From Thermoleophilia bacterium (GTDB lineage: Bacteria; Actinomycetota; Thermoleophilia; Solirubrobacterales; 70-9): DNA of 64,000 nucleotides. The stretch is taken from contig JAENWT010000003.1 of assembly GCA_016650125.1 (NCBI GenBank), forward strand, positions 1 through 64,000, in the 5' to 3' direction. Of this stretch, positions 20,093 through 58,273 are shown one piece after another (positions within the stretch are counted from its first letter, which is position 1; each line of letters starts with the position of its first letter). Below the pieces are notes generated by a model. It saw only the letters and a program-made list of their open reading frames with translations, was not told the DNA's origin and searched no databases. A program made the position numbers and the translations under genes.

Positions 20093-20271
20093 ACACCTGA
20101 GCCCGAGGTACCGCGACCTGACCGTGTGATGTCGCCAAGGGCCGAGCACCGAAAGCCCGCGACGATGGAAGTGACCTGAATCGAGGCCACATAGCGGCCC
20201 TTAATCCGGTCACTTCGTGAAATCGAGAGGCCCGAAGTACCCGAGACCCAGGCAGGAAGCCAAATCTGGTT

Positions 20272-20314
20272 CTGGGTCGGTTAGGGACCCAGGCTCAGGT
20301 CGTAACCGACCCAG
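20272..20314. repeat. 12-bp perfect inverted repeat
   Basis: CTGGGTCGGTTA (20272-20283) and TAACCGACCCAG (20303-20314) are separated by 19 nt. There is no T-tract, so a classical terminator is unlikely. Confidence 0.85.
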
Positions 20315-20385
20315 TTCGCCGAAGCTGACCCCTGCGATGTCGCAGGCGACCCGTCACCCGCGGCAGACCGACCCCGAACCAACAC

Positions 20386-20426
20386 AATCGTCCTTTTTCA
20401 TCCATAGTCGATGAAAAAGGACGATT
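20386..20426. repeat. 17-bp perfect hairpin, possibly a bidirectional terminator
   Basis: AATCGTCCTTTTTCATC (20386-20402) pairs perfectly with 20410-20426 across a 7-nt loop. The stem contains a T5/A5 tract in its middle. It lies 24 nt beyond the stop of the minus-strand MBL gene and could end transcription from either side. Confidence 0.8.
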
Positions 20427-57146: not shown

Positions 57147-57193
57147 AAGTGGTGTCGATTTGCACGGGATTTACGTGCAAATCGACACCACTT
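57147..57193. repeat. 20-bp perfect hairpin upstream of the AbiEi/DUF559 gene
   Basis: AAGTGGTGTCGATTTGCACG (57147-57166) and its exact reverse complement (57174-57193) flank a 7-nt loop GGATTTA. There is no T-tract after the arm, unlike a normal terminator. It lies 41 nt after the upstream stop and 71 nt before the next start. Confidence 0.95.
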
Positions 57194-57264
57194 TCTCGTT
57201 TGGGGCGTTGACCAGTTGTAACCCGTGTTGCCCACTGGTGCCTAGGATCCCTCGAACCTTTGGA

Positions 57265-58215
57265 ATGGACATCGCAGCGAACGGTACCCCCGGTCTCGAG
57301 TCTGTGGCGCAGGCAATCTGCCGTCGACAACACGGTGTAGTCGGCCGATGGCAGTTGCTCTCGGCCAGCATCCCGAGATCGACAATCGATTCCCGCACAG
57401 GGTCCTTCCTTTTTCCGATCTTCCCTGCCGTTTTTTCAGTCGGTCGGCAACAAATCACCCAGGACGGAGTCTGGATGGCAGGCGTCCTCGCGGCCGGTGA
57501 GGGCGCGGTTCTGGGTGGGCGCAGCGCCGCTGCGGCGTGGGGATTCATGAAGGCGAGGCCTGGCGTAGATGTCCTCCGTTGCGGAAGGCACAGGTCGGGT
57601 CGTGGGTCGATCGTCCTGAATGACAGGCGGGTCTCGATTCCACTGGTCATCAGGAGTACCCGAAACCTCCCCGACCAGGACATCAGGGAAATCAGGGGCA
57701 TTCCGGTTGTCTCTGCGGCCCGGGCGCTCCTGGATCTCGCATCGAGCCTCACCCCGACAGCCCTGAAGTACGGCTTCATCGAAGCCGATCGGCTTGGGCT
57801 TCTGGACGATGAAGAAGAACTCGAAGATTGCATGAACCGCGGTCGCGGACGGCCCGGCGCATCGAAATACCGGGCTCTGGTGCTCGACCGGATCCCAGAC
57901 CTCGACAAAGCCAAGTCACTACTGGAGGGTCTGATGCTCGACGCCTGCCATCGCGAAGGGGTTGAAGCTCCGGAAGTGAACGTCAAGATCGGCGGTCACG
58001 AAGTGGACTGCGTTTGGCGTGATCGTCGCCTTGCCGTTGAGCTGGACAGCTATGGGTTCCACCGCGGCCTGGAAAAATTCGAGAAAGACCTGGCGCGGAA
58101 CAACCGGCTCTGGGCCGACGGGTGGATCCTTCTTCGATTCACCTGGCGGAGGGTCACACGAGAACCGGATCAGGTTGTCAAAGAGGTCCGGGCTGCGCTG
58201 GCATCGAGTCGATAG
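57265..58215 (+). CDS. AbiEi-antitoxin-domain / DUF559 nuclease-like protein
   Basis: A 316-residue protein. The N-terminal part (VAQAICRRQHGVVGRWQLLSASIPRSTI) is an AbiEi-type winged helix. The middle contains RGIPVVSAARALLDLA. The C-terminal part is a DUF559/Vsr-like PD-(D/E)XK nuclease domain: E221, D248 (HEVDCVW) and E259 with D261 (RLAVELDSYGFH), then RNNRLWADGWILLRFTWRRV. ATG 57265 is chosen; the frame opens at TTG 57160 inside the left hairpin. Codon use is visibly less GC-rich than its neighbours. No toxin gene is adjacent. Two related hairpins bracket it. Confidence 0.85.
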   Translation: MDIAANGTPGLESVAQAICRRQHGVVGRWQLLSASIPRSTIDSRTGSFLFPIFPAVFSVGRQQITQDGVWMAGVLAAGEGAVLGGRSAAAAWGFMKARPGVDVLRCGRHRSGRGSIVLNDRRVSIPLVIRSTRNLPDQDIREIRGIPVVSAARALLDLASSLTPTALKYGFIEADRLGLLDDEEELEDCMNRGRGRPGASKYRALVLDRIPDLDKAKSLLEGLMLDACHREGVEAPEVNVKIGGHEVDCVWRDRRLAVELDSYGFHRGLEKFEKDLARNNRLWADGWILLRFTWRRVTREPDQVVKEVRAALASSR

Positions 58216-58226
58216 ATCGGAACCCG

Positions 58227-58273
58227 AAGTGGAGACGATACGCACGGCCAATCAGTGCCGATGCGCTCCACTT
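58227..58273. repeat. Degenerate hairpin related to the one at 57147-57193
   Basis: AAGTGGAG (58227-58234) pairs with CTCCACTT (58266-58273). Inside, CGCACGGC pairs with GCCGaTGCG with one bulge. The left arm AAGTGGAGACGATACGCACG matches the left arm of the upstream hairpin at 16 of 20 positions. It starts 11 nt after the AbiEi/DUF559 stop. Confidence 0.85.

What the first reader, a model, noticed from the sequence alone, without database searches (positions are those of the whole stretch)
57147..58273. AbiEi/DUF559 nuclease-like gene bracketed by two related hairpins
The gene at 57265-58215 is enclosed by a perfect 20-bp hairpin (57147-57193, 7-nt loop) and a degenerate relative (58227-58273). 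Their left arms agree at 16 of 20 positions (AAGTGG-n-G-n-CGAT-nn-GCACG). Neither has a terminator T-tract. A nuclease-like protein with an AbiEi winged-helix domain, no cognate toxin, and its own flanking palindromes resembles an autonomous unit such as REP/RAYT elements, where the protein recognises the hairpins. It could also be a defence gene with its own binding sites. I know of no description of DUF559 proteins paired with such hairpins.
Basis: partly seen in the sequence, partly recalled or inferred. Interest (0 to 1): 0.8.

Follow-up and report, generated by a model that had tools for sequence, protein, structure and literature searches.

The report
Palindrome-repeat units with homing-type nucleases
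A nuclease gene sits between two copies of a hairpin-forming DNA repeat, and its relatives in bacteria of at least three phyla sit between their own hairpins, most of which are scattered through that genome; this looks like a genome-repeat system analogous to REP/RAYT elements but built on an unrelated, homing-type nuclease that nobody seems to have described.

Summary
In detail: a 316-aa AbiEi/DUF559 gene (57265-58215) lies between a perfect 20-bp hairpin (57147-57193) and a degenerate relative (58227-58273). The unit idea holds, in altered form. The AAGTGG hairpin itself occurs nowhere else in the genome. But all four other paralogues in this genome (one a broken remnant) are also bracketed by two copies of a hairpin, a different sequence for each. 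Those hairpins are dispersed repeats (2 to 16 copies away from the gene). Across relatives and other phyla, about 25 of 32 gene-flanking hairpins tested recur in their own genome, up to dozens of copies. None was found in nuclease-free genomes of the genus. Copies often form doublets with centres 71-73 bp apart. Sister nucleases have similar hairpins (Mantel r=0.40, p=2e-4). RAYT/Y1 transposases are absent. The predicted structure is an AbiEi-type inverted-repeat-binding module fused to an EDxHD/Vsr homing-endonuclease domain; four catalytic-type residues are invariant in 118 of 118 homologues. Best reading: a REPtron-like selfish system whose nuclease recognises, and probably propagates, palindromic repeats. 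Association and dispersal are shown; binding, cleavage and mobilisation are inferred. It is not a member of REP/RAYT, because enzyme and tag differ.

The parts
57147..57193 (+). left hairpin / inverted repeat, perfect 20-bp arms, 7-nt centre
57265..58215 (+). 316-aa AbiEi-EDxHD (DUF559/MTES_1575) nuclease gene
   Evidence: catalytic-type residues D248 E259 H266 D275 invariant in 118/118 homologues
57430..57840 (+). AbiEi-like DNA-binding part of the protein (residues 56-192)
   Evidence: PADLOC AbiEi 4.6e-11; Foldseek to AbiEi 6y8q and Rv2827c 1zel
57970..58200 (+). nuclease domain (residues 236-312), Vsr/EDxHD fold
   Evidence: Pfam; I-Bth0305I 3r3p, TM 0.80 over the target; Vsr 1cw0
58227..58273 (+). 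right hairpin, degenerate copy of the left one
20168..20216 (-). solo copy of the hairpin that brackets the C2 paralogue (L019 type)
20272..20314 (+). CTGGGTCGGTT..AACCGACCCAG hairpin, a dispersed family without a nuclease in this assembly
20386..20426 (+). solo copy of the hairpin that brackets the broken C23 paralogue (L022 type); two further solos in the genome

Best explanation
The gene plus its two flanking inverted repeats is one unit of a REPtron-like selfish system. Each nuclease has its own roughly 47-bp palindromic repeat. Two molecules of the nuclease bind the two arms through their AbiEi-type module, and the EDxHD nuclease domains meet over the asymmetric centre and nick or cut there. 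Repair or copying of the break occasionally seeds a new copy of the repeat (single or phased doublet) at other extragenic sites. Copies that bracket the nuclease gene keep gene and target together, while solo copies are the non-autonomous, REP-like population. The unit in the window is an old or isolated one: its left repeat is perfect, its right repeat is decaying, and it has no solo copies. Shown: bracketing, locus-specific sharing of the repeat, dispersal, coevolution, folds (predicted), conserved nuclease residues, absence of RAYTs. Inferred: binding, cleavage, copying. My odds: association real 0.97; the nuclease recognises its repeat 0.85; it drives their spread 0.6.
For: All four other paralogues in G000 (C2, C5, C23, and a broken one in C23) are bracketed by two copies of a paralogue-specific hairpin. 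Upstream and downstream flanks of 116 homologues align at score >=18 in 24%, against 0.6% for mismatched pairs and 1.1% for shifted intervals in the same loci; at >=25 the figures are 15.5% and 0 of 636. The gene-flanking hairpins are dispersed in their own genomes: G000 and G001, G009, G011, G012, G014, G035, and Actinomycetes, Patulibacter, Acidimicrobiales, Microthrixaceae, Longimicrobiales and Archangium MAGs. The query gave zero hits in six nuclease-free genomes. Repeats have sharp boundaries in unrelated flanks. In G014, 17 of 18 doublets have a spacer of exactly 24 nt, mostly unrelated in sequence, and two doublets share a spacer but not outer flanks. Centre spacings are 71-73, 61-62 and 80-81 bp over several families. 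Similar nucleases have similar hairpins, Mantel r=0.40, p=2e-4. Structure: AbiEi plus I-Bth0305I/Vsr. AbiEi binds two 23-bp inverted repeats 3 bp apart and bends DNA (PMC7319586); the hairpins here have a median length of 47 bp. I-Bth0305I dimerises on a target of nearly 60 bp (PMC3943268). No Y1 transposase in 17 of 18 genus genomes.
Against: No binding, cleavage or transposition datum exists. EDxHD enzymes are not known to make a covalent DNA intermediate, so the copying step has no established chemistry. The window's own repeat is not dispersed. Many homologues, mostly outside the genus, show no detectable flanking hairpins. Some dispersed families in G000 have no nuclease in the assembly. 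No two closely related strains with and without a repeat were available, so gain cannot be told from loss. Nearly all key genomes are MAGs.
Confidence: 0.6

Rival explanations
1. The hairpins are operators: the protein is an AbiEi-like autorepressor with a nuclease tail, and the dispersed copies are its binding sites for regulation or nucleoid organisation, spread by ordinary duplication or recombination rather than by the nuclease.
For: The AbiEi fold binds inverted repeats of this size and bends DNA. One hairpin lies upstream of each gene. Centre spacings step by about one helical turn.
Against: The downstream copy and many solo copies lie beyond stop codons or between convergent genes, not in obvious promoters. 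The nuclease residues are invariant. Copy numbers reach dozens and are specific to one genome.
Confidence: 0.2
2. The repeats are mobilised by another enzyme (a RAYT/IS200-type transposase, now lost or outside the assembly), and the nuclease genes are passengers caught between repeats.
For: Some repeat families in G000 have no nuclease nearby. REPs elsewhere are tied to RAYTs (PMC2817692).
Against: Y1_Tnp is absent from 17 of 18 genus genomes; the one genome with it has neither nuclease nor these repeats. Each nuclease has its own repeat type, and repeat similarity tracks nuclease similarity.
Confidence: 0.1
3. Ordinary transcription terminators that happen to flank the gene.
For: Strong hairpins, often between convergent genes. 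In sister species different hairpins stand at the same gaps.
Against: No T-tract. The whole 41-55-nt unit, centre included, is shared between the two flanks of one gene and with distant loci, while other paralogues have different sequences. The nuclease-free sister G005 has 1.3 such hairpins per 100 kb against 6.5-7.0 in nuclease carriers.
Confidence: 0.05
4. A defence nuclease whose genomic palindromes act as self marks or decoys.
For: AbiE systems are phage-defence toxin-antitoxin systems; PADLOC AbiEi profiles match.
Against: No partner toxin beside the window gene, and no phage or viral homologue found. Locus-specific repeats bracketing each gene are not a defence layout known to me.
Confidence: 0.05

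Closest known systems
REP/RAYT (REPtron, REPIN, BIME) system
   Same: Gene bracketed by copies of a palindromic repeat; repeat dispersed extragenically; repeat type specific to the gene; doublets and mosaics with unrelated spacers; gene and repeat coevolve (PMC2817692, PMC3116915). The 71-bp doublet period equals the distance reported for P. fluorescens GI REPINs, perhaps by coincidence.
   Different: Enzyme is AbiEi-EDxHD, not HUH/Y1. No GTAG tag at the foot. Units are 41-55 nt rather than 20-40. Flanking copies are often direct, not always inverted.
EDxHD homing endonuclease I-Bth0305I / Vsr
   Same: Catalytic domain fold; I-Bth0305I dimerises on a long target (PMC3943268).
   Different: Here free-standing, fused to AbiEi domains, with many candidate genomic targets that also bracket its own gene; no intron or intein.
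AbiEi / Rv2827c type IV antitoxins
   Same: N-terminal fold; AbiE operator is an inverted repeat of about 49 bp (PMC7319586).
   Different: No AbiEii/DUF1814 toxin partner; extra nuclease domain; repeats on both sides of the gene and across the genome.

Membership tests
REP/RAYT (REPtron) | HUH/Y1 tyrosine transposase (PF01797) | tested here: not met
   Protein is DUF559/EDxHD; PF01797 absent from 17 of 18 genus genomes
REP/RAYT (REPtron) | gene flanked by two copies of a palindromic repeat that is abundant in the genome | tested here: met
   Met for most paralogues and relatives; the window unit has the two copies but no dispersed ones
REP/RAYT (REPtron) | GTAG-type tetranucleotide at one foot of the hairpin | tested here: not met
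   No shared tag outside the stem in L021, L019 or G014 copies; ATAG is seen in the centre of 10 of 31 types instead
REP/RAYT (REPtron) | repeat and enzyme coevolve | tested here: met
   Mantel r=0.40, p=2e-4, 29 nuclease/hairpin pairs
REP/RAYT (REPtron) | enzyme cleaves the repeat | not testable with these tools
   needs biochemistry
EDxHD/Vsr-like homing endonucleases | EDxHD catalytic fold with conserved residues | tested here: met
   3r3p TM 0.80 over the target; D248, E259, H266, D275 in 118/118
EDxHD/Vsr-like homing endonucleases | insertion of the gene into its own target site (homing) | tested here: inconclusive
   Gene absent from the same gap in two sister species, but no close strain pair to define a target
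AbiE type IV toxin-antitoxin | adjacent AbiEii/DUF1814 toxin gene | tested here: not met
   Neighbours are a 261-aa membrane-type protein and a peroxiredoxin

The most novel reading that the evidence does not exclude
A previously undescribed class of mobile palindromic repeats propagated by AbiEi-EDxHD nucleases through nicking and repair-copying, independent of HUH transposases, present in Actinomycetota and at least two other phyla.
Probability: 0.55. Interest if true: 0.92.

Novelty: new variant of a known kind. Interest (0 to 1): 0.84.

Why it matters
REP-type repeats have been tied to one enzyme class, the HUH RAYTs, and another palindromic repeat superfamily (CGTC-tagged REPs) is described as lacking a dedicated transposase (PMC3733652). 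A second, unrelated nuclease with the same architecture would mean that gene-bracketing palindromes plus a cognate nuclease evolved at least twice. It would give a function to a common uncharacterised protein family found in 67 of 198 sampled genomes of the phylum, and provide natural nuclease/target pairs with dozens of different specificities.

Tried and rejected
AAGTGG motif as a genome-wide family: rejected, no further copies. Rfam: no meaningful match. Covariation in G014 copies: uninformative because the arms are nearly invariant. A transposition event from the two near-identical G014 nuclease loci: rejected, C29 looks like a strain-variant contig of C7 (99.8% over 5.9 kb). Outer stem around doublets: complementarity no better than mismatched pairs. 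Target-site duplications: none apparent by eye. Phage, plasmid and viral homologues: none of note. Named-genome search with the single protein found nothing; the alignment found 33 loci. The automated up/down comparison misses true pairs (window, L052, L136-L138), so its percentages are lower bounds. Repeated hairpins within the 200-kb samples were too sparse to count families. Literature: no paper in the held library links DUF559 or AbiEi nucleases with dispersed palindromes; most subscription papers and bioRxiv preprints are not covered.

Full report
WHAT WAS CHECKED. The two hairpins and the gene are exactly as described. The left one (57147-57193) has perfect 20-nt arms and a 7-nt centre. 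The right one (58227-58273) pairs at 14 of 20 positions and shares 16 of 20 left-arm letters. The protein carries DUF559/MTES_1575 at its C-terminus and AbiEi profiles before it. The hairpin sequence is found nowhere else in the 2.83-Mb assembly.

THE PARALOGUES. The genome has four more members, one of them a broken remnant. Each is bracketed by two copies of a hairpin, and each by a different one. C23 (L020): CTGGCCGCGGTTTCC...GGAAACCGCGGCCAG, as a doublet on both sides. C5 (L021): TTCTTTGCCGCGTT...AACGCGGCAAAGAA. C2 (L019): GAGGTGACC...GGTCACCTC. The broken C23 copy (L022): GATCGTCCTTTTTC...GAAAAGGACGATC.

DISPERSAL. These hairpins are repeats. A search of the genome found 16 solo copies of the C5 type, 11 of the C2 type, 3 of the L022 type and a doublet of the L020 type. 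Flanks are unrelated and the boundaries sharp. The window itself carries a mosaic of three families at 20168-20426. In relatives, 17 further gene-flanking hairpins gave 40 matches in G009, 28 in G011, 60 in G012, 58 in G014 and 27 in G035; matches count both strands, so copies are fewer. There were none in the six nuclease-free genomes G003, G005, G007, G016, G038 and G039. Outside the order the same holds for an Actinomycetes MAG (96 matches), Patulibacter (23), Acidimicrobiales (16), Longimicrobiales (11), Microthrixaceae (10) and Archangium (6). By my count from these tables about 25 of 32 hairpin types occur away from their own gene. The seven or so exceptions include the window's own.

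STATISTICS. For 116 homologues with both flanks, upstream and downstream 350 bp align at score >=18 in 24%. The figure is 0.6% for flanks of different loci and 1.1% for shifted intervals in the same loci; at >=25, 15.5% against 0 of 636. Hairpins scoring >=12 are in 23% of upstream and 13% of downstream flanks against 0.9% of control stretches. These are lower bounds, because true pairs such as the window, L052 and L136-L138 were missed. In 200-235-kb samples, strong hairpins number 7.0 and 6.5 per 100 kb in G009 and G014 but 1.3 in the nuclease-free G005.

ANATOMY OF THE REPEATS. Units are 41-55 bp, median 47. In G014, 39 copies have almost invariant outer arms (CTGGAGCCG[A/G]T), a variable inner part and a centre usually reading ATAG. 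ATAG occurs in the centre of 10 of 31 types against 2.7 expected from shuffles. Copies often come as doublets. In G014 the spacer is exactly 24 nt in 17 of 18 cases, yet mostly unrelated in sequence; one pair of doublets shares a spacer but not outer flanks, so doublets can probably move as units. Centre-to-centre distances across families and genomes are 71-73 bp, with smaller groups at 61-62 and 80-81, and start-to-start distances of 53 or 63 in G061. Such steps of about ten base pairs suggest that proteins bind the repeats on one face of duplex DNA (inference).

COEVOLUTION AND ALTERNATIVE MOVERS. Nuclease identity and hairpin similarity correlate (Mantel r=0.40, p=2e-4). Sister pairs L137/L138 and L051/L052 have the first and fourth most similar hairpins of 406 pairs. 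Y1/RAYT transposases are absent from 17 of 18 genus genomes. The exception, G003, has no nuclease and none of these repeats.

PRESENCE AND ABSENCE. In two sister species the two neighbours of the window gene stand next to each other without it. A solo hairpin of G001 is missing from G011, where two convergent genes abut. At other sites sister species carry different hairpins. Gain and loss cannot be told apart at this distance.

THE PROTEIN. AlphaFold2 gives pLDDT 93 and pTM 0.87. Foldseek finds AbiEi and Rv2827c for the N-terminal part, and I-Bth0305I (EDxHD homing endonuclease), an endonuclease-like protein and Vsr for the C-terminal part. D248, E259, H266 and D275 are invariant in 118 of 118 homologues. 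AbiEi binds two 23-bp inverted repeats 3 bp apart, as two monomers, and bends DNA (PMC7319586). I-Bth0305I dimerises on nearly 60 bp (PMC3943268). A 47-bp interrupted palindrome is what a dimer of such a fusion might be expected to recognise. This is inference.

MECHANISM. I propose that the nuclease binds its own palindrome, nicks or cuts near the centre, and that repair spreads the repeat, with gene-bracketing copies keeping nuclease and target linked. Only the association, dispersal, coevolution and (predicted) folds are shown. The operator/regulon reading is the main rival, and the two are not exclusive.

COMPARISON. The architecture is that of RAYT genes flanked by REPs, with BIME-like mosaics and REPIN-like doublets (PMC2817692, PMC3116915). 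It is not a member: the enzyme and the tag differ, both tested. Searches of the held literature found no account of this pairing.

LIMITS. Nearly all key genomes are MAGs. Hairpin detection is crude. Loci are not phylogenetically independent. No experiment exists. The window's own unit is not itself dispersed; it is interesting as a member of the larger pattern.

Noticed in passing
window 20168-20426: Three different hairpin families within 260 bp of one intergenic gap (a BIME-like mosaic); similar mosaics recur elsewhere in the genome (L194, L195, L204, L205).
   Followed up: partly
L192, L194, L195, L204, L205, L210 (G000): Dispersed hairpin families with no nuclease seen in the assembly: CTGGGTCGGTT..AACCGACCCAG, and GATCGGGATTGTGCCGA-type; their partner may be lost or unassembled.
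   Followed up: no
G014 doublets (L251-L269): Spacers of exactly 24 nt but mostly unrelated sequence; doublet period 71 bp equals the distance reported for P. fluorescens GI REPINs.
   Followed up: partly
L173 (G017) and L341 (G006): At gaps where one species has a repeat or the nuclease unit, sister species carry a different hairpin, suggesting hotspots or turnover between convergent genes.
   Followed up: partly
L357 12244 and 12367, L366 13295 (G014): A separate repeated hairpin with poly-T or poly-A ends, TTTTTTCTTTTGGTATTCGCTCCCGCTCGG-type.
   Followed up: no
L270 (G014:C29): A contig 99.8% identical to part of C7 over 5.9 kb with a different left flank holding an integrase-like gene; probably a strain variant in the MAG.
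   Followed up: yes
table (genomes of the phylum): Many family members carry one in-frame stop, suggesting frequent gene decay as might be expected of selfish elements.
   Followed up: no
L021 2560-2620: Short tandem repeat CACAACGGACGTTCAGCGTAACCC beside the C5 unit.
   Followed up: no
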